Shown here: piece after piece, positions 12,678 through 64,000 of the stretch
Layout: the number at the start of each line of letters is the position of its first letter
How positions within the stretch are numbered: the first letter of the stretch is position 1
Source: Clostridium sp. Marseille-Q2269
GTDB taxonomy: Bacteria; Bacillota; Clostridia; Clostridiales; Clostridiaceae
Assembly (NCBI RefSeq): GCF_943736985.1
Contig: NZ_CALSFS010000001.1
Location: 372,001-436,000, forward strand
Direction of reading: 5' to 3'
DNA length: 64,000 nucleotides
Program-made: the position numbers and the translations under genes
The notes under the pieces: generated by a model
What the model was told of the DNA's origin: nothing
Database searches by the model: none
Seen by the model: only the letters and a program-made list of their open reading frames with translations

Positions 12678-13400
12678 TTATCTAAGTAATCTTTGTATAG
12701 GACTTACTGGTCCTAATAAATTTAATATATCTTTATATGGTATAGGTATCTGAAATAGGCCATATGCATATGGAGTATACTGATACACTGGATAATACAA
12801 TACTAATGAATCAGGAGTAAGATAAAATTGTTGATTAGGATCTAACCCCTTATATTCTTCTAGCATAGGAACATTATTTACCTTTATATATCCCCTAACT
12901 TTTTCTTCTAAAATAGGTTTGTAGTTTATTTTACTGGTAAAAAGATCACTTAACTTATAAATTTTCCCTGTGTCTAAATCAATATTTAAAGATGAGTATA
13001 ATGTAGATCCATGAGCTGCATTTGTATAATAGGTATACATACCAAATAGTATACTTAATATACATTTGTTATTTAATTTAACATCATAAAAACCTATAAC
13101 TTCTTCCACATTTATTTTACTAGGTATCAAAGCTTGCTGTTTAAATAAATTACTTACCTCATTAGCTATAGCTTCATTTACTAATTTTGATATAGGTTCG
13201 TCAGCCACCTCTTGTATAAAAGGATATGTTATTTTAAAATTTTTAGGTTGTAAATTTTGTTCACTTAAAGAAATAGCACCCATATTGCATTGTCTATGAT
13301 AGCCATTATATCCTCTACACATATTTCTCATAACTTGGTTATATCTATTCAAGTAACAAAATCTACACATACTATAACTATCAAAAGGTATAAAGTTCAT
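12678..13400 (-). CDS. DUF3298/DUF4163-type protein with Cys-rich N terminus
   Basis: This 240-residue protein has a cysteine-rich start (MCRFCYLNRYN, MCRGYNGYHRQC) and then a region like the paired DUF4163 and DUF3298 domains found in RsiV and PdaC. It contains TYYTNAAHGSTLYSSLNIDLDTGK and a C-terminal YYPVYQYTPYAYGLFQIPIPY segment. Most relatives are exported, but this copy has no signal peptide, so it is probably cytosolic or a spore component. That placement is inference. A TAGGAAAG ribosome binding site precedes the ATG. It forms its own transcription unit. Confidence 0.72.
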   Translation of the reverse strand: MNFIPFDSYSMCRFCYLNRYNQVMRNMCRGYNGYHRQCNMGAISLSEQNLQPKNFKITYPFIQEVADEPISKLVNEAIANEVSNLFKQQALIPSKINVEEVIGFYDVKLNNKCILSILFGMYTYYTNAAHGSTLYSSLNIDLDTGKIYKLSDLFTSKINYKPILEEKVRGYIKVNNVPMLEEYKGLDPNQQFYLTPDSLVLYYPVYQYTPYAYGLFQIPIPYKDILNLLGPVSPIQRLLR

Positions 13401-13908
13401 ATTATATCTTTCCTATATAATTAATTCTGTACCATTATATGTAATTACACATAATGTTGATACCTTATTTAAAAACTTATGTTATAATGTGTATTTTCTA
13501 ATGATAAATAAAATAATACATATATATAAAATAAAAGTAAGGAGATAAGTATTATACTTCTCTCCTTACTTTTATTCACTATTATTGGGGGTATATTTTA
13601 GAGGGATTGTTTTAATTATTAAATATATATACTATAATCATATTTTATTAAATATATCTTTTTAAATTAGTGAAGTTTTCTTCACAAAATTTAACTTATC
13701 ACTGATTATTTTCCAAATATGATATAATATATTTTAATTAATAATTATTATTTTTATTCATTATAATATTATTTTCAATAGTTTGCAATAATTTTTTTAT
13801 TTATTTTTTATATTTTAAATTTCATTTTTTATAATTACAATGTTTTATAATTGTAGAAAAAAATATAATGAAAAATTTATTTTTATATGAGATAGTTTTA
13901 TATGCTTC
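13401..13908. other. Long non-coding spacer between pyridoxal kinase and the DUF3298-type gene
   Basis: No open frame with a ribosome binding site is visible in these 508 bases. The region holds a strong hairpin at 13532-13574 (listed separately) and a short palindrome, GTGAAG-TTTT-CTTCAC, at 13670-13685. The strong hairpin is more than 330 bases from the kinase stop, so a small transcript ending there is possible but unproven. Confidence 0.4.
13532..13574. terminator. Hairpin/terminator far downstream of pyridoxal kinase
   Basis: The arms AAAAGTAAGGAGA and TCTCCTTACTTTT form a 13-bp stem with a loop of about 15 bases. Either strand could terminate. On the minus strand the nearest upstream gene is the kinase, about 335 bases away. 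Confidence 0.7.
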
Positions 13909-14745
13909 TTATATTAATCTTTTTAAGGCTTTTTCTAACATTATGCCATCTCTTTCATCATAATCATATTCCATACTAACTCTTATTCCATAATTTATAA
14001 AATCTACAGCTTTATCTACAGCATCTTTTATGTCTTCTTTGTTTAATAAGCTTCCTACAATTACACTAGTAAAAGCATCTCCTGTACCAGGATAGTTAGC
14101 ATTTAATTTATCAGCCTTTGCTATATAAAATTCTTTTTTTGTTTTATTATATGAGGCCGTAGCTATTATATTATCATATAATGGAACACTGGTTATTATA
14201 ACATTTTCTGGGCCCATATGGCTTAAACTTACAAGCATTTCTTTCACTTCTTTTTCAGAAACTTTATAGTGAGAACAATCCATATCTAAAAGATAGCAGG
14301 CTTCAGTATAATTAGGACTTATAACATGAGCCAATTTTATAAACTCTCTCATCTTATGAACCATATTATAATCTATAGCCGAATACAACTCACAATTATC
14401 TCCCATTACTGGATCTATAACCACCAGTGTATCTTCATTTTTAAAATATTTTATAAAATCTGATATTATATTTATTTGATCTACGGAACCTAAATACCCA
14501 CTATATATACAATCAAAACATAAATGTAATTGTTCCCAATGTTTTATATAATTTTGTAAATTACCAGTTAAATCTATTATTTCAGGATTACCAAATCCTC
14601 CTGTATGTGTAGATAAAACTGCTGTAGGAATGGGGCATACCTGAGATCCCATAAGAGATATTATAGGTATTACTGTAGTTAATGATGCTCTTCCATAACC
14701 TGATATATCTTGTATAGCTGCTACTTTTTTTGTATCTACTTTCAT
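13909..14745 (-). CDS. pdxK: Pyridoxal/pyridoxamine kinase (PdxK/PdxY type)
   Basis: This 278-residue ribokinase-family enzyme phosphorylates B6 vitamers to supply pyridoxal 5'-phosphate. Motifs are AIQDISGYGRASLTT at the start, LSTHTGGFGNP near residue 45, the VIDPVMGD segment near 115, and the NYPGTGDAFTS active-site motif near 230 with its catalytic aspartate. An AGGAGATGG ribosome binding site precedes the ATG. The gene stands alone. B6 salvage fits the several PLP-dependent amino acid reactions expected in this organism. An alternative hydroxymethylpyrimidine kinase role is less likely given the N-terminal motif. Confidence 0.88.
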   Translation of the reverse strand: MKVDTKKVAAIQDISGYGRASLTTVIPIISLMGSQVCPIPTAVLSTHTGGFGNPEIIDLTGNLQNYIKHWEQLHLCFDCIYSGYLGSVDQINIISDFIKYFKNEDTLVVIDPVMGDNCELYSAIDYNMVHKMREFIKLAHVISPNYTEACYLLDMDCSHYKVSEKEVKEMLVSLSHMGPENVIITSVPLYDNIIATASYNKTKKEFYIAKADKLNANYPGTGDAFTSVIVGSLLNKEDIKDAVDKAVDFINYGIRVSMEYDYDERDGIMLEKALKRLI

Positions 14746-22578: not shown

Positions 22579-22769
22579 ATGATTTTCCCCCTCTTCAACA
22601 CTTGCTTAATAATATGTGGTAACCCTTTAACAGGTCATTATATAAGTTGAATTTTTAAGTAGGCTATATATTAATTAAGATCTCATAGATTTTGTATTAT
22701 ATTTATCCATAAAAGCACAAAAGAACAGTGATAAATTCTATTTATTTGCATAGCAAACAAAGCTAAATT

Positions 22770-22958
22770 TACCTTCTGTCCTTTTATCTGAAAGCTACCC
22801 TATTGAACAAAACATAGGTTTCTTCTTTGATGCTGTATTTAAACAATCTCTCCAGAGTAGTGTCCGATTATTATATTGAACCTGAAAGCTTCAGAATAGG
22901 ATTTTAGCATTTCCCACTCCTTTCTTCTTCGGTTATTATAAAAATATCTCCAATAATC
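22770..22958 (-). ncRNA. Tandem glycine riboswitch (gcvT type)
   Basis: On the minus strand two aptamers follow one another. Aptamer 1 (22958-22866) is closed by GATTATT pairing with AATAATC. It contains GGAGA, ACCGAAGAAG and GAAGCTTTCAGG, and ends in GGACAC. Aptamer 2 (about 22857-22774) contains CTCTGGAGAGA, a GAAGAAA junction, AGCTTTCAG, ATAAAAGGACAGA and a TCTG/CAGA closing pair. These conserved blocks and the short linker match the two-aptamer glycine riboswitch class. It lies about 190 bases before the permease start. An expression platform is not obvious. Confidence 0.9.
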
Positions 22959-26161: not shown

Positions 26162-26538
26162 TTGTCTTCCTCCTTGCATTTACTACATAACCCTAAAAAT
26201 AATATATTAATATCATAAATTTGTAAGTTTTCTCTATGTTCTATATTTCTATCTAAGTTCAGATATTGTAAATTCAAATTAATATTATTAATATCTATTA
26301 TACTATTACATTTTAAACATTTAAAATGTATATGCAAGGGTTTTTCACTAAATATTTTTATTTCGTAATAACTAATAGAGTTAATATTAAATTCCTTAAC
26401 TATACCTAGTATTTTAAAAAGTTTTACATTTTTATAAACTGTAGCAATTCCTATACTATATTCTTTAATTTCATCATATATTTCCTGGGCATTTAATTGA
26501 GTACAGCTTTCTAATAATAATCTTGATATTATCTTCTT
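26131..26538 (-). pseudogene. Broken Fur-family metalloregulator
   Basis: An open frame of 135 codons on the minus strand encodes most of a Fur-family protein. The order is LLLESCTQLNAQEIYDEIKE, IGIATVYKNVKLFKILGIV (winged helix), then HIHFKCLKCNSIID and a C-terminal CSKC zinc pair. No ATG, GTG or TTG with a ribosome binding site begins it. The frame is closed by a TAA where the first helix should be. An adjacent frame reads LKEDNIKI, like a normal Fur N terminus, so the gene seems to have lost part of its first helix and shifted frame. The sole TTG in frame would give only 68 residues without the DNA-binding domain. Confidence 0.7.
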
Positions 26539-26607
26539 TTAAGGATTTTACTAATACCTATAAAATTAAATCTAAAAAACAATGTAGCTTATAAAATTAA
26601 TTTATAA

Positions 26608-34831: not shown

Positions 34832-34892
34832 ATAATTATTATTAATATTTTTCTTGAAGTTGTTGCAAAGCATTTGCATTTATATGTATAAT
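34832..34892. promoter_or_regulatory. Divergent znuA-znuCB control region
   Basis: ATAATTATTAT at 34832-34842 is a Fur-superfamily core lying 35 bases upstream of znuA. The inverted repeat TGCAAA-GCA-TTTGCA at 34864-34878 overlaps a candidate -35 (TTGCAA, 34863), with TATAAT at 34887 facing znuCB. A metal-responsive repressor site is likely, but which regulator is unknown. Confidence 0.5.
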
Positions 34893-35016: not shown

Positions 35017-35670
35017 ATGATAGAAATAAATAATTTGTGTTTTTCTTATACTAAGAAAAAACCTTACATATTACAAGATATAAATCTTAATATAGAAAGA
35101 GGTCAATATGTTTCCATTCTAGGTTCTAATGGTTCTGGTAAAAGCACATTGTTAAAATTGATACTTGGTTTTTTAACCCCTACTTCAGGAAGCATAAATT
35201 TAAAAAATAGTAAAATAGGATATGTACCTCAAAAATATGAAAACTTTAATTCTGATTTTCCTATAACTGTAGAAGAGGTGCTTAAATGTCATAAAAAAGT
35301 ATTAAAAATACAAGATTCTAATTCTATAAATAGATCCTTAAATATCGTAAAAATGAATGATTATAAACATTGTCTTATAGGTAATCTATCTGGAGGTGAA
35401 AGGCAAAAAATATTTATTGCTAGAGCTTTAATGGGAGAACCAGAACTTTTAATATTAGATGAACCTTCTACTGGCATAGATGTAAATAGTCAAAGTGAAA
35501 TATATAAAATAATAAGCCATCTAAATAATTGCCATAATCTAACTGTTTTATCCGTGGAACATAATATTTCTGCAGCGCTTTCTAATTCTAGTCATTTATT
35601 TAAAATTACAGATGGCATTGGAAAACTTTATACTAAAGATCAATACATACAACTAAAAGAGGTGATGTAA
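35017..35670 (+). CDS. znuC: Zinc/manganese ABC transporter ATPase (ZnuC type)
   Basis: This 217-residue ATPase has Walker A GSNGSGKST (about 35-43), Q-loop YVPQK, signature LSGGERQKIFIARALMG and Walker B LLILDEPSTGID. The closest family is the metal-chelate/zinc ATPases. It overlaps the downstream permease gene by one base (TAATG), so the pair is translationally coupled. The ribosome binding site is CAGGAGGTAAA. Divergent znuA would supply the binding protein. Confidence 0.93.
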   Translation: MIEINNLCFSYTKKKPYILQDINLNIERGQYVSILGSNGSGKSTLLKLILGFLTPTSGSINLKNSKIGYVPQKYENFNSDFPITVEEVLKCHKKVLKIQDSNSINRSLNIVKMNDYKHCLIGNLSGGERQKIFIARALMGEPELLILDEPSTGIDVNSQSEIYKIISHLNNCHNLTVLSVEHNISAALSNSSHLFKITDGIGKLYTKDQYIQLKEVM

Positions 35671-36458
35671 TGTTAAATTACACTTTCATGCAAACAGCTT
35701 TAATTATTTCTATATTTATATCCATACTATGTCCTAGTATAGGCATATATTTAGTTCTTAGAAGATATTCAATGATTGGAGATACCTTAGCTCATAGTTC
35801 ACTGGCAGGTATAGCTATAGGATTATCTCTAGGTCAAAATCCTATATTAAGTTCCTTTATATTTACTTCTGTAGCAGGAGTTTTTATAGAATTTTTAAGA
35901 AATTATTATAAAAAATATGCAGAACTTATTTTATCTATAGTGCTTTCTTTAAGTGTAGGTATTGCTATAACTTTAGTAAGTTCAGGTAGGGCTTCTGGTA
36001 ATATAAATTCTTTTCTATTTGGAAGTATTCTTACAGTATCAAAATATGAACTTTTAACTGTATTTATATTAAGCATAATATCTTGCCTTACTTTAATTTT
36101 ATTACATAATGAACTTTTATATATAGCTTTTGATGAAGAAGGAGCTAAAGTAGCTAATATAAAAGTCAAACTTATAAATTACATTTTTTCTATTTTAGTA
36201 GCCGCTACCATATCTGTATCTATTAGAATAGTTGGAGTTTTAGTATTAAGTTCTTTAATAGCTCTCCCAGTAGCTACTGCTCTACAATTAAAAAAAGGAT
36301 TTAAAAGCACATTATTTTTATCCATATTAATAAGCATACTTGATGTAGTATCAGCCTTATTTTTATCCTATTATCTAGATTGCGCTCCTGGAGGAATAAC
36401 TGCTCTTATTTCTGTTCTTACTTTACTTATAGTTATGATATTAAAAAAAATTAAATAA
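35670..36458 (+). CDS. znuB: Zinc/manganese ABC transporter permease (ZnuB type)
   Basis: This 262-residue protein has seven to nine membrane spans and belongs to the ABC-3 permease family. Marks are GDTLAHSSLAGIAIGL near residue 38, a DEEGAKVANIKVK cytosolic loop near 155 and SIRIVGVLVLSSLIALPVATA near 185. It forms the channel of the ZnuABC system. Its start overlaps the ATPase stop. A consensus promoter for a separate non-coding unit begins 17 bases after its stop. Confidence 0.92.
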   Translation: MLNYTFMQTALIISIFISILCPSIGIYLVLRRYSMIGDTLAHSSLAGIAIGLSLGQNPILSSFIFTSVAGVFIEFLRNYYKKYAELILSIVLSLSVGIAITLVSSGRASGNINSFLFGSILTVSKYELLTVFILSIISCLTLILLHNELLYIAFDEEGAKVANIKVKLINYIFSILVAATISVSIRIVGVLVLSSLIALPVATALQLKKGFKSTLFLSILISILDVVSALFLSYYLDCAPGGITALISVLTLLIVMILKKIK

Positions 36459-36474
36459 AGTTAGTTTTAATTTA

Positions 36475-36503
36475 TTGACATTTTGAGTTGCTCAGTATAT
36501 AAT
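36475..36503 (+). promoter_or_regulatory. Near-consensus promoter of a candidate small RNA
   Basis: TTGACA at 36475-36480 and TATAAT at 36498-36503 are separated by exactly 17 bases, the consensus sigma-A arrangement. The 43-bp palindrome at 36496-36538 covers the -10 and the expected start site. No open frame follows on this strand. Confidence 0.75.
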
Positions 36504-36538
36504 ATTAATAAATAATAATTATTTATTAATATTATATA
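36496..36538. repeat. 43-bp perfect palindrome overlapping a promoter
   Basis: Two 21-base arms flank a central A. The middle reads AAATAAT-A-ATTATTT and contains ATAAT-A-ATTAT, the core shared by Fur and PerR boxes. Its position over the -10 and start site would suit repression. A second possibility is that it forms a hairpin at the 5' end of the RNA. Confidence 0.8.
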
Positions 36539-36711
36539 TCACTCTTGTATACTCCCCCAAAAGATACAAGACAATATAATCTTATAATTTTAAGATCCCC
36601 TTTATAAAAGGAGCTGTCGCATTAAGAACAAATTCTACAATATATTGTGTTAACTTTAAACTTGTAAAACAATATATTGTGCTTAAATTCTTTGATGCGA
36701 TAGCCTCTTTT
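36510..36711 (+). ncRNA. Candidate regulated small RNA with C-rich loop
   Basis: This predicted transcript of about 200 bases has no open frame. After the palindrome comes an eight-bp hairpin, TCTTGTAT and ATACAAGA (36543-36571), with loop ACTCCCCCAAAAG. A small AT hairpin at 36579-36596 and a second C-rich run (ATCCCC, 36595-36600) follow. The palindromic repeat at 36606-36711 would form the 3' end, with TCTTTT as a U-tract. C-rich single-stranded loops are how several Gram-positive sRNAs contact Shine-Dalgarno sequences, and the promoter's Fur-like palindrome recalls FsrA of Bacillus. That parallel is inference. Confidence 0.5.
36606..36711. repeat. Dispersed palindromic repeat, copy 1
   Basis: This unit of about 100 bases has inverted ends (GGAGCTGTCGCATTAA and TTTGATGCGATAGCCTC) and two internal ACAATATATTGT palindromes around a TAACTTTAAACTTG centre. 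Related copies are at 42973-43068 (inverted) and 50216-50319 (same orientation). It may be a MITE-like element or a mobile terminator. Confidence 0.8.
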
Positions 36712-36800
36712 CTATAAATTAATAATATTATACATATATAATCTTTATAATATTATTTGATATTCTTAATAATTTATTTAATAGTAATTAATGGTTAGAT

Positions 36801-37313
36801 CTATTTTTCTAAAATAATATTCTCTAGGTTAAACTGTCTATCCTTTAAAACTTTCCATTTAAATCTAATTTTTTTTAGGGTTATTTTACCATTTATTTTT
36901 TTTTCTTTATGGTTTTTGTTTAAATAAGAAAATATTTTTAACTGAACGTTATAATCATAAGTAGCTGTTCCATCATTATTTTTACGATAATTATTCACAT
37001 TTATCTTATTTACATTTACACAATAGTCGTTTGTATTAACTATAAGTGACAATACTAATGGAATCTGATCTTTCCATAAATTATGATAAGCACTTTCCGT
37101 CATCAGATTTCCAAAAACATCTTTGGTATATACTTGTTCTAAAGTCATATTTCTATTAGTTTTTTTCTTAGGCTTAACTGTGTATAGTAGGTTTATATAG
37201 TCTCTAACCACTTTCTCCGACTCTTTTCTATCGTCAACAATGTTATAGGTACAAGAAAATACTATCATACTTACTAATATAAAAACTATTAGAATCCTTA
37301 TACCTTTAGTCAT
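36801..37313 (-). CDS. Putative lipoprotein, unknown function
   Basis: This 170-residue protein has an N-terminal hydrophobic segment ending in VFSC, which fits a lipobox with the cysteine near residue 21. The mature part is lysine- and asparagine-rich with beta-strand-like segments and a C-terminal KITLKKIRFKWKVLKDRQ stretch. It is probably surface anchored. The fold may resemble NTF2-like proteins, but that is a guess. I start at the ATG at 37313 after GGGAGGAG. It is monocistronic. Confidence 0.65.
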   Translation of the reverse strand: MTKGIRILIVFILVSMIVFSCTYNIVDDRKESEKVVRDYINLLYTVKPKKKTNRNMTLEQVYTKDVFGNLMTESAYHNLWKDQIPLVLSLIVNTNDYCVNVNKINVNNYRKNNDGTATYDYNVQLKIFSYLNKNHKEKKINGKITLKKIRFKWKVLKDRQFNLENIILEK

Positions 37314-37765
37314 ACAAACTCCTCCCAAATATTTATGAATCCAATAATGAAATTAAACACTGTATTATTAGATTTATATATTATATATGAATTATTTAAT
37401 CAATTAATATATAAATCTAATTTTTATTGTATACTTTTTTTGTTAGTATATTATATATAAAATTTTAATTTATGGTAAACATTATAATAAAATAATAATG
37501 AAACTTTTTGTATAAATATAAAAAGACTGCTGATAAAGTATGTTTATCAACAGCCTGGAGTTGAATATAAATCTATATTCAACTATTTAAATATGACTAT
37601 TTAATATTAGATATTTGCTTTCTATTTAACAATATTAATCAACAAATTATGGGGTAAAACAATCAATACTCTAATTAAAATATTGATACACTTATTCTTA
37701 CTTAAAGCAAACTCTAATTAAATTTAAAATTCTGTATTAAATGGCCATATTATTAACATGATTAT
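37314..37765. other. Intergenic region with the opp terminator
   Basis: Apart from the hairpin at 37520-37556 this 452-base spacer is AT-rich, with no coding frame or repeat that I recognise. The hairpin is more than 200 bases past the oppF stop. Confidence 0.4.
37520..37556 (-). terminator. Terminator of the opp-type operon
   Basis: On the minus strand CTGTTGATAAA and TTTATCAGCAG pair around a short loop and are followed by TCTTTTTATA. Confidence 0.75.
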
Positions 37766-42939: not shown

Positions 42940-42972
42940 TAATATAGTGGTTTTTTCTCAACATGAGAAAAT

Positions 42973-43068
42973 GGGGCTGTCTCATTAAAGAATTTAATCA
43001 CAATATATTGTTTTACAGTTTAAAATAACACAATATATTGTAGGATTTATTCTTAGTGCCACAGCCCT
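42973..43068. repeat. Dispersed palindromic repeat, copy 2 (inverted)
   Basis: The ends GGGGCTGTCTCATTAAAG and GTGCCACAGCCC and the two internal CAATATATTG palindromes match, in reverse orientation, the copies at 36606 and 50216. It ends five bases before the stop of the chemoreceptor gene and could serve as its terminator. Confidence 0.8.
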
Positions 43069-44965: not shown

Positions 44966-46684
44966 TTAAATTTTAAATTGTGCAACAGAATTCATTAATT
45001 CTTTAGAACTATTTTTTAATAAATCCGTATACTTGACTATGTCTTTACTAGCTAAAACTATCTTATCATTATTTCCAGCTATATTACTAGTATCTTTAGC
45101 TCCTTCATTGGCAGCAGCCGCTACATTCCCAATTACTTCTACTATATTTTTTATAGATGCTAATAATTCTTCTGATGTAGCACTTAAATCATTAGATATA
45201 TCATTGTAATAAGTAGCATTATTACTATATGATTTAAATACTTCCACTTTACTTTTATGAGATTCAGATATATAACTATCTATAAAACTTAATGCATTAC
45301 TTGAACTTTCTTTAAGATTTTCAACAGCCCCTAGCACTTCTTTCGTAGTTTCTTGTATTCTCACCACAGTCTCACTTGATTGTTCTGCTAACTTTCTTAT
45401 TTCTTCAGCTACAACTGCAAATCCTCTACCTGATTCTCCTGCTCTTGCTGCTTCAATAGCTGCATTTAATGCTAATAAATTTGTTTGAGAAGTTATTTGA
45501 AGTATAGCATCAGATAATATATTTATTTCTTCTATAGTTTTAGATTTCTCTATAGCATCCTTAGTAGCATCATATATATTATTCTTAACTTTATTGGCAT
45601 TTTTTTCAGACTCTATAGCATTAGCCTTTAACTTTTCCACCTTAGCTAATATTTCACCTGCGCTGTTAGCGCCTTCTTCTGCCTTTAAAGCTATATTTTC
45701 CACAGCTTTTTCTAGTTCCTCTGAAGTTGCACTCATTTCCTCTGATGAGGCTCCTGTTTCCTCCATACTAGCTGATAACTCTTCTGTAGCTATTGAACTT
45801 TCTCGTATTCTTCTATCCAAATTATTTATATTGTCATATATGTTGCCCACCACGCTAGTTGAATTATTCATTTCATTTACAACATTATTAATTATGTTTC
45901 TTATAGATTCATACATTTTATTAACAGAATTAGTTAATTGTCCAATTTCATCTTTACGTTTTAAAAGTTTAAGAGAAACTTTTTCTGTAAAATCTCCTGT
46001 AGATAATTTATTTAAATATTCCACTGATTCATTTAATGGTGTAACTATTGATCTAGCTATTATAGTAGTTGTAAGTATAGCTATAACAATACTTAAAATT
46101 AAAACTATTGTTATAAATTTATTTGAAAAATCATTAGATTTATCATTTTCAATTTTAAACTGCTCTGCCTCTTTAACATTAAAATCTGATAATTCTATAA
46201 GAGTTTTTTGATAATTTTCATTTATCTCATTTAGATCTCTAAATTTTATAGCTGCCAGTTCCGTCTTTCCTTCTTTAGCTAATTTAAATACCTCTTCTCT
46301 TCCTTTTCTAAATTCATTTAAATTCTTCTCCATATAATTTAGAAGTTCTTTTTCTTTTTCACTACTAACACCTATTCTTTTAAATTCTTCAATATCTTTA
46401 TCAAATTTTTCTATTCTAGCACCAATATCCTCCTTCAGTTTTTCTTGAGCTACTCCATCCTTAGACAAAAGAACTATTCTAGCAATATCTGCTTCTGTAG
46501 CTCTTGCTTGAGCTCTACTATCGTTTAATACTTTTACACTAATGAGATTCTCTTCATATAATCTTTTAATAGCTTTATCAGATTTAGAATTAAAATAATA
46601 CCCTGTTACTCCTACAATTATTGTAAAGATTAACATAATTGAACTCATAAAAAGTATTTTATTTTTTACTTTTAGATTTTCCAT
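44966..46684 (-). CDS. Methyl-accepting chemotaxis protein
   Basis: This 572-residue chemoreceptor has membrane span 1 (about 10-30), a 4HB-type extracellular sensor (about 31-185), span 2 (about 187-207), HAMP, and a cytoplasmic signalling domain with [12 protein letters not shown]-like tip ([21 protein letters not shown]). The start is the ATG at 46684 after AGGAGGATT. It sits directly upstream of a close paralog of the same layout on the same strand, so the two arose by tandem duplication. The ligand is unknown. It would signal to CheA at the membrane. Confidence 0.93.
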
Positions 46685-47109
46685 AAACAATCCTCCTAAA
46701 ATAACTGCTAATTTATTGACAAATCAATAAATTATTCCATACATTATTATGTATTTGATATATTAATTATTAACAAATAATAATTATCCCATATATCATA
46801 TGAAAATATTATCATATTTATATGCAAATTTCAATAAATTCATAAAAAAAACATTTAACTTATTTTATACTAAATGTTCTTTCTATAGCTACTATTACTT
46901 ATTAAATCGTTTATTTTTAATAAAACTCAATGAAATAATTCATACACATCATTTCATTTTAACTGTACTATATCTCATTTTCCCTACTAATTCTATTGTT
47001 ATTTTGAAGGTAATAAAAGGGGATGATATTAATTCATAGTGTTGTATATTACACATAAATAGAGAATCGGAAAAATTTTATAATCCGATTCTTCATTATT
47101 AACTCTAGG
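46685..47109. other. Intergenic region upstream of the chemoreceptor
   Basis: An open frame at 46800-47039 (79 codons, plus strand) has no ribosome binding site and an atypical Tyr/Phe/Leu-rich sequence, so I do not call it. ATAATAATTAT at 46777-46787 is a Fur-family core sequence upstream of the chemoreceptor. Confidence 0.45.
47063..47092 (-). terminator. Terminator after the Dabb-domain gene
   Basis: AGAATCGGA and TCCGATTCT make a perfect nine-bp stem about 18 bases past the stop. The T-tract on the minus strand is broken. Confidence 0.65.
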
Positions 47110-50100: not shown

Positions 50101-50215
50101 AATTAACCTCCTAATAATTTTAAAAAAATACATATATTTCATACAAAGTTAATTATAACAAATATCATACTAGTTTTCTCTTTTTTCTAGTTTTTTATTT
50201 TAATATATAAAAATT

Positions 50216-50319
50216 AAAAGAGGCTGTGGCACTAAGAATAAATCCTACAATATATTTGTTAACTTTAAACTTGTAAAACAATATATTGTGGTTGAATTCT
50301 TTAATGAGACAGTCTCTTT
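50216..50319. repeat. Dispersed palindromic repeat, copy 3
   Basis: The ends GAGGCTGTGGCACTAAG and TTTAATGAGACAGTCTC, and an internal ACAATATATT pair around TTAACTTTAAACTTG, match copies at 36606 and 42973. One internal palindrome has lost a base. It lies between the FecCD-type ATPase stop and lplA. Confidence 0.8.
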
Positions 50320-63188: not shown

Positions 63189-63774
63189 TTAATAATTTTC
63201 ACATGCTAATTCAAAATAAGATTTTGGATGTAAACATGCTGGACATTTTTCTGGTGCTGCAGTTCCTTCATAGATAAATCCACAGTTGCTACACTTCCAA
63301 AGCACTTTTTCATCCTTTTTAAATACTTTATCATTTTCAACATTTTCTAATAATTTAAGATATCTTTTTTCATGTTCTTTTTCTACTTTTGATATCATAT
63401 CATAAGCTACTGCAACTTCTGTAAATCCTTCTTCTCTTGCTACTTTTGCAAAAGTTGGATATAATTCTGACCATTCTTCATTTTCTCCAGAAGCAGCTGC
63501 TTTTAGATTGTCTGCAGTATTATCATATAATGCTACTGGATAAGAAGCAGTTATTTCAATAGCGTCTCCTTGAAGATCTTCTTTTAAAAATTTATAAAAT
63601 CTCTTAGCATGTTCTTTTCTTGTTCTGCTGTTTCTATAAAAATTTTTGAAATTTGTAAGAATCCTTCTTTTTAGCTACACTAGCATAATAAGTATATCTT
63701 CCTCTTGCTTGAGATTCTCCTGCAAAAGATTTTAATAAATTCTCTGCTGTTTTTGTTCCTCTTAATGATTTCAT
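63189..63774 (-). pseudogene. rbr: Rubrerythrin with two single-base frameshifts
   Basis: The 586-base region encodes a complete rubrerythrin if one A is restored at each of two sites. It would be 195 residues. GESQARGRY and ETAEQEKEH supply the di-iron ligands, with EEW and EVAVAYDMISKVEKEHEKRY in the second half-site. A C-terminal rubredoxin domain has CSNCG and CPACL. The first shift is in the T-run at 63668-63672, the second at 63615-63618. The start ATG at 63774 follows GGAGGG. Intact, it would reduce hydrogen peroxide using NADH-linked electrons. The sequence as given yields only a 45-residue N-terminal peptide. Confidence 0.88.
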
Positions 63775-63894: not shown

Positions 63895-63936
63895 ATAATT
63901 ATTTGTCAATATTAATTACTAATAAATAATAATTAT
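63895..63936 (-). promoter_or_regulatory. Candidate PerR/Fur-type sites upstream of rubrerythrin
   Basis: ATAAT-A-ATTAT at 63926-63936 fits the shared core of PerR and Fur boxes. A partial copy, ATAAT-T-ATTTG, lies at 63895-63905. They are 120-160 bases before the rubrerythrin start. Rubrerythrin genes are known PerR targets in clostridia, which makes this plausible, but AT content raises the chance rate. Confidence 0.5.
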
Positions 63937-64000
63937 CCATTATGTTTATATATGAATTCTATTTTTATTACAAATTAATAATGTAAAAGATTCCAATACT

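What the first reader, a model, noticed from the sequence alone, without database searches (positions are those of the whole stretch)
36475..36711. Candidate small RNA behind a palindrome-gated consensus promoter
TTGACA-17-TATAAT is followed by no gene. A 43-bp perfect palindrome with an ATAAT-A-ATTAT core covers the -10 and start site. The predicted RNA has an eight-bp hairpin with a CCCCC loop and ends at a palindromic repeat with a U-tract. This layout is what one expects of a Fur-family-repressed regulatory RNA similar in logic to FsrA, but no homology was tested.
Basis: partly seen in the sequence, partly recalled or inferred. Interest (0 to 1): 0.75.

Follow-up and report, generated by a model that had tools for sequence, protein, structure and literature searches.

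The report
Peroxide-type promoter without a gene

Summary
The features are real. TTGACA-17-TATAAT (36475-36503) is one of two perfect promoters in the window; the 43-bp palindrome (36496-36538) is its longest perfect inverted repeat. The 8-bp C-loop hairpin exists, and 36539-36604 folds better than 200 of 200 shuffles (z -4.3).

The "3' end with U-tract" (about 36606-36711) is one copy of a dispersed ~105-bp inverted-repeat element: three copies in the window, strong matches in 29 of 206 family genomes. It is not specific to an sRNA gene.

The palindrome scores as neither a Zur nor a Fur box. Its core matches a site in front of rubrerythrin here (21/23) and in a relative (21/23); a shared 18-mer lies before thioredoxin, glutaredoxin and peroxiredoxin genes elsewhere. 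That points to PerR, a Fur-family repressor (inferred). In seven relatives perR itself follows znuB; here it does not.

Best reading: a PerR-type gated promoter driving a short non-coding transcript that runs into the repeat. Functional sRNA or leftover of a lost gene is undecided: the hairpin pattern occurs in 0 of 206 family genomes, and no close relative was available. The Fur-family idea is partly right; FsrA-like function is unproven.

The parts
35670..36458 (+). znuB-type zinc ABC permease, the gene upstream
   Evidence: Pfam ABC-3 210 bits; below every NCBIfam equivalog cut-off, so the zinc specificity is inferred from the neighbouring znuA- and znuC-like genes and the Zur-like box
36475..36503 (+). 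consensus sigma-A promoter TTGACA-17-TATAAT, 16 nt after the znuB stop codon
36496..36538 (.). perfect 43-bp A/T palindrome over the -10 and the expected start site
36510..36524 (.). 7-1-7 box AAATAAT-A-ATTATTT, PerR-type operator (inferred)
   Evidence: rank 1 of the window with a matrix from sites in relatives (partly circular); 23-nt core 36506-36528 recurs 21/23 at the rubrerythrin promoter; rank only 25 with a matrix from perR promoters
36510..36604 (+). predicted 5' part of the non-coding transcript (start inferred as 7 nt after the -10)
   Evidence: z -4.30 for 36510-36604 and for 36539-36604; no transcript data
36543..36571 (+). 8-bp hairpin with 13-nt C-rich loop
   Evidence: no homolog
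36579..36596 (+). second small hairpin (6 bp)
36606..36711 (.). copy of a dispersed ~105-bp terminal-inverted-repeat (MITE-like) element with A/T-rich ends; plausible bidirectional terminator
36801..37328 (-). convergent ORF of 175 aa (lipoprotein-like by eye), no family match

Best explanation
A sigma-A promoter that is switched by a PerR-type (Fur-family, peroxide-sensing) repressor. Shown: a consensus promoter, a palindrome over its -10 and start site, and near-identity of the palindrome core to sites at rubrerythrin promoters. Inferred: the repressor is PerR; it sits on the box and blocks RNA polymerase; peroxide or metal loss releases it. The released promoter makes a non-coding RNA of about 95-200 nt that begins within the palindrome, carries the C-rich hairpin and stops at, or runs through, the dispersed repeat element. 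Whether that RNA has a job of its own is left open; the two answers are given as rivals.
For: Palindrome and promoter exceed chance. Outside itself, the best match in the window to the 23-nt core is 63920-63942 (21/23), just upstream of the -35 of a rubrerythrin gene that has the only other perfect promoter (2 of 200 whole-window and 6 of 500 intergenic shuffles reach 21). The upstream region of the closest rubrerythrin relative (G006) also holds a 21/23 match; 4 of 30 rubrerythrin upstreams reach 19/23, against 2.3% of 299 other upstreams. The 18-mer AATAATTATTATTTRTTA, contained in the palindrome, occurs once in each of 7 of 14 genomes (reversed control: one); 5 of 7 lie before rubrerythrin, thioredoxin, glutaredoxin (two similar loci) and peroxiredoxin genes. 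perR promoters have a related box TAATAAT-T-TTTATTA in their spacer (30 of 31 sequences fit the promoter pattern). perR lies directly after znuB on the same strand in 7 of 30 PerR loci. Clostridial PerR controls rubrerythrin and its own operon in C. difficile, and oxidative-stress genes in C. acetobutylicum (passages of PMC8546684 and PMC3828012).
Against: A matrix built from perR promoters ranks the site only 25th (9.0 bits; 11 of 15 training boxes 11.9-15.6). 7 of 30 perR upstreams reach 18/23 but none 19. In perR promoters the box lies between -35 and -10; here it lies over the -10 and downstream. The matrix that ranks it first is partly circular: the thioredoxin, glutaredoxin and peroxiredoxin sites were found with an 18-mer that the candidate contains. 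Two of the 7 genome hits (G019, G177) are not before a recognisable stress gene. A/T-only motifs are treacherous at 27% G+C. No binding or expression data. Whether the window's organism has perR could not be tested.
Confidence: 0.58

Rival explanations
1. Functional peroxide-induced small RNA: the hairpin and its C-rich loop pair with ribosome-binding sites, a clostridial counterpart in logic to OxyS or FsrA.
For: Perfect promoter and operator kept without a gene; 36539-36604 structured beyond 200 of 200 shuffles; C-rich loop could pair with G-rich ribosome-binding sites (inference).
Against: No homolog: 0 of 206 genomes carry the hairpin pattern, and the listed matches of 36459-36604 (capped list) lie mostly in the A/T palindrome; Rfam empty at gathering level, one chance miRNA match inside the repeat at E 1.8. 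The 3' half is a mobile-type repeat. The loop complement has no match longer than 9 nt elsewhere in the window.
Confidence: 0.33
2. Orphaned promoter: perR (or another peroxide-regulon gene) once followed znuB here, the coding part was lost, and promoter and operator remain, giving a by-product RNA.
For: perR follows znuB on the same strand in 7 of 30 PerR loci, with TTGAC-17-TATAAT 20 nt after znuB in G107 and G108 (16 nt here). Among 58 znuB rows (window and overlapping loci included) that promoter pattern turned up within 400 nt only in the window and in L164, L183 and L038, all three with a same-strand Fur-family gene next. The window shows other decay: a frame-shifted rubrerythrin and a Fur-family remnant.
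Against: No perR remnant in 36456-36805: best tblastn E 0.21 with very short matches. The box is placed differently from perR promoters. A decaying promoter need not stay 12/12 with a perfect 43-bp palindrome.
Confidence: 0.4
3. The A/T palindrome and consensus promoter are fortuitous in A/T-rich DNA, and the region is only a 3' spacer between convergent genes.
For: Long A/T palindromes occur in other clostridia; perfect promoters appeared in 5 of 15 shuffles; 13 of 37 copies of the repeat lie between convergent ORFs.
Against: Arm 21 against a maximum of 13 in 15 shuffles; the same core at the rubrerythrin promoter.
Confidence: 0.2

Closest known systems
PerR-controlled promoters of clostridia (rubrerythrin operon of C. 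difficile, PMC8546684; regulon of C. acetobutylicum, PMC3828012; passages read)
   Same: consensus promoter with an A/T-rich palindromic box of the same half-site
   Different: no protein gene follows; box lies over the start site; regulator not shown
FsrA of Bacillus subtilis, Fur-repressed sRNA (papers seen as search listing only; C-rich pairing recalled)
   Same: metalloregulator-gated, C-rich single-stranded loop (layout only)
   Different: no sequence homology found in Rfam; box is not a Fur box; target pairing untested
OxyS of Escherichia coli (recalled)
   Same: would be a peroxide-induced small RNA
   Different: OxyS is activated by OxyR; here a repressor is proposed; no homology
RsaC of Staphylococcus aureus (search listing and start of abstract only, PMC12421985; origin in the mntABC 3' region recalled)
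   Same: RNA beside a metal ABC transporter operon
   Different: RsaC is recalled as released from the operon's 3' region; here an own promoter
Miniature inverted-repeat elements (MITEs)
   Same: ~105 bp, terminal inverted repeats, many dispersed copies, no coding capacity
   Different: no target-site duplication found, no autonomous parent seen

Membership tests
PerR regulon promoter | palindromic box of the clade's type overlapping the promoter | tested here: inconclusive
   rank 1 with a matrix from stress-gene sites (partly circular), rank 25 with a matrix from perR promoters; 21/23 at the rubrerythrin promoter
PerR regulon promoter | PerR binding and peroxide induction | not testable with these tools
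   needs binding or expression data
PerR regulon promoter | perR gene in the same genome | not testable with these tools
   no genome held for the window; 195 of 206 family genomes have a match at E <= 1e-30
Fur-regulated sRNA (FsrA type) | Fur box at the promoter | tested here: not met
   -1.4 bits, rank 346
Fur-regulated sRNA (FsrA type) | sequence and structure homology to a known RNA family | tested here: not met
   no Rfam match here at gathering level; one chance match at E 1.8
Zur-regulated promoter | TGCAAAT-N-ATTTGCA box | tested here: not met
   6 of 14
small regulatory RNA | transcript detected | not testable with these tools
   no RNA data
small regulatory RNA | conservation in relatives | tested here: not met
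   hairpin pattern in 0 of 206 genomes; relatives held are distant
MITE | short element with terminal inverted repeats in many dispersed copies | tested here: met
   3 copies in window; E <= 1e-10 in 29 of 206 genomes
MITE | target-site duplication | tested here: not met
   24 of 37 copies with both ends called; one of 64 offset/length settings exceeded chance, with 2 cases; a weak test
MITE | autonomous parent transposon with the same ends | tested here: inconclusive
   end pattern in 16 of 20 genomes, inverted pairs only about 96 nt apart (read by eye)

The most novel reading that the evidence does not exclude
A peroxide-sensing PerR repressor directly controls a small regulatory RNA in a clostridium, encoded beside the zinc uptake operon where relatives keep perR itself, so that peroxide sensing acts on mRNAs through an RNA, with a dispersed repeat captured as its terminator.
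Probability: 0.25. Interest if true: 0.7.

Novelty: new member of a known kind. Interest (0 to 1): 0.42.

Why it matters
Regulatory RNAs under Fur-family control are known in other Firmicutes, but in two searches of an open-access library I found none reported as PerR-controlled in clostridia, which face peroxide without catalase in many species (recalled). If the RNA is real, a strict anaerobe would have an OxyS-like branch of its oxygen response. If it is a leftover, it shows how perR moved or was lost beside znuCB. The PerR-type box described here gives a testable regulon including an MCP gene. The repeat also warns that low folding energy at a 3' end can come from a mobile-type element.

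Tried and rejected
Rfam at gathering and relaxed thresholds: nothing for the candidate. Plasmid and phage records by distant blastn: no match; helicase gene against plasmids: no match. Hairpin pattern in 206 genomes: none; in viral contigs five matches, none with promoter or box upstream. PerR coding remnant: none (an earlier try, ran with empty protein queries through my offset error and is void). Fur and Zur boxes rejected. Small ORF: none of 40 aa or more; a 20-codon TTG-started frame seen by eye has no ribosome-binding site. Intrinsic terminator from the 43-bp palindrome: no U-tract follows. Target-site duplication and parent transposon of the repeat: not found. Papers on clostridial MITEs: one search gave five papers, none about clostridia judging by title; one search gave none. 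Target search for the C-rich loop: nothing longer than 9 nt in the window.

Full report
What is there. Between znuB (35670-36458) and a convergent ORF (36801-37328, minus strand) no ORF of 40 aa or more is found. The promoter TTGACA-17-TATAAT at 36475-36503 matches 12 of 12. It is one of two perfect promoters in the window (5 of 15 shuffles had one, none two), and the 43-bp palindrome 36496-36538 is the longest perfect inverted repeat (arm 21; next 18; shuffles at most 13). The first hairpin and a second smaller one give 36539-36604 a z-score of -4.30, with 0 of 200 shuffles as stable.

The 3' end is a repeat. blastn of 36590-36724 against 206 genomes of the family gives matches at E <= 1e-10 in 29 genomes (recounted by hand from its table; four candidates scored per genome, so copy numbers are lower bounds). 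The window has three copies: about 36606-36711, 50215-50319 and 42966-43065. An alignment of 31 copies shows conserved ends close to GGGGCTGTCGCA / TGCGACAGCCCC, and A and T runs outside them in many copies. Of 37 copies (three in the window), none lies inside an ORF, 13 lie between convergent, 23 between tandem and 1 between divergent ORFs; 100 background gaps of 60 nt or more in the same sequences gave 20, 64 and 16. No target-site duplication (24 copies tested) and no long paired ends were seen. It may act as a bidirectional terminator (inferred); it explains the very low folding energy.

Which regulator? The znuA/znuC region carries a Zur-like box, TGCAAAGCATTTGCA at 34864-34878 (13 of 14 to the box read from two relatives); the palindrome has 6 of 14. 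A Fur matrix from 24 boxes near feoB genes (30 loci looked at; boxes chosen by at least 12 of 14 matches to a recalled consensus) scores the palindrome -1.4 bits, rank 346. Its 23-nt core 36506-36528 finds its best match outside itself, 21/23, at 63920-63942, next to the -35 of a rubrerythrin gene; 2 of 200 shuffled windows and 6 of 500 shuffled intergenic sets reach 21. The closest rubrerythrin relative, G006, has a 21/23 match upstream, and of 30 rubrerythrin upstreams 8 reach 18 and 4 reach 19, against 9% and 2.3% of 299 other upstreams.

The 18-mer AATAATTATTATTTRTTA, present on the minus strand of the palindrome, was sought in 14 genomes that I chose, some because earlier calls had shown similar sites there. 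It occurs once in 7 of them; the reversed control gave one. The G006 rubrerythrin hit was known before. Of the other six, four lie before thioredoxin (G125), glutaredoxin (G166, G167, nearly the same locus) and peroxiredoxin (G005) genes, confirmed by Pfam for L281, L282 and L284; L283 (G167) was read from its translation only. G019 and G177 have no recognisable stress gene behind the site. A related 18/23 site lies upstream of an MCP gene (46771). A matrix from six sites in relatives ranks the candidate first in the window, with 1 of 200 shuffles reaching it; part of these sites were found by an 18-mer the candidate contains, so this is partly circular. Against it, a matrix from perR promoters, whose box TAATAAT-T-TTTATTA sits in the spacer, ranks the candidate only 25th. 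PerR is therefore the best lead, not a proof.

What sits here in relatives. In G107 and G108 a Fur-family gene follows znuB on the same strand, with TTGAC-17-TATAAT 20 nt after the znuB stop; the G108 protein scores 248 bits against a cut-off of 180 for a PerR equivalog model. Of 30 PerR loci, 7 have znuB directly upstream on the same strand (G108, G107, G097, G096, G098, G125, G114). In 58 znuB rows (window and overlapping loci included) the promoter pattern occurred within 400 nt in the window, L164, L183 and L038 only; the three relatives have a same-strand Fur-family gene next. The window has no perR and no remnant of it here.

Interpretation. Best supported is a PerR-type gated promoter that makes a short non-coding transcript. 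Two answers remain for its purpose. A functional sRNA is favoured by an intact promoter, an intact operator and a structured RNA. A leftover of a lost or moved perR is favoured by the position, the absence of homologs (0 of 206 for the hairpin) and other decay nearby, but the box position differs from that of perR promoters. I give the leftover reading slightly more weight. The confidences of the rivals are not exclusive of the best explanation.

Literature. Passages of PMC8546684, PMC7567364, PMC11980386, PMC3828012 and PMC3879012 were seen. PMC3828012 states that deletion of perR in C. acetobutylicum raises zinc two-fold, which fits a link between perR and zinc uptake. PMC7567364 reports ncRNAs changed in a perR mutant of Leptospira, so RNAs downstream of PerR have precedent outside clostridia. 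PMC11980386 says the C. difficile PerR regulon does not include several peroxidase genes, a reminder that not every stress gene is PerR-controlled, and names another regulator, OseR. FsrA, RsaC and IsrR papers were seen as search listings only. A PerR-controlled clostridial sRNA was not found in searches; the library is partial.

Limits. No genome, strain or RNA data of the window's species were available; A/T-only motifs are weak evidence alone; the operator, start site and terminator are predictions.

Noticed in passing
63189-63774 (-): Rubrerythrin gene with a shifted reading frame near 63640; has the only other perfect promoter (63909, -) and a palindrome-like site at 63920-63942.
   Followed up: partly
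26164-26544 (-): Fur-family-like stretch (tblastn 25% identity to a PerR, E 3.6e-6) with no ORF spanning it, between a DUF134-like ORF and an ABC transporter ORF; looks like a remnant.
   Followed up: partly
42966-43065 (-) and 50215-50319 (+): Two further copies of the ~105-bp dispersed inverted-repeat element.
   Followed up: yes
34864-34878: Zur-like box TGCAAAGCATTTGCA between divergent znuA and znuC.
   Followed up: yes
46771-46793: Site similar to the palindrome core (18/23) upstream of an MCP gene (44966-46690, -); unnamed relatives L093 and L094 have a similar site at the promoter of an MCP-type gene.
   Followed up: partly
13738-13754: Second-best PerR-type box of the window (TTAATAATTATTATTTT), upstream of 12678-13400 (-) and downstream of 13909-14745 (-).
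   Followed up: no
22766-22865 (-): Glycine riboswitch aptamer (Rfam RF00504, 43.2 bits).
   Followed up: no
36574-36589 and 36735-36752: Similar ATATAATCTT-TATAAT stretches on both sides of the repeat element, seen by eye; not tested as a duplication.
   Followed up: no
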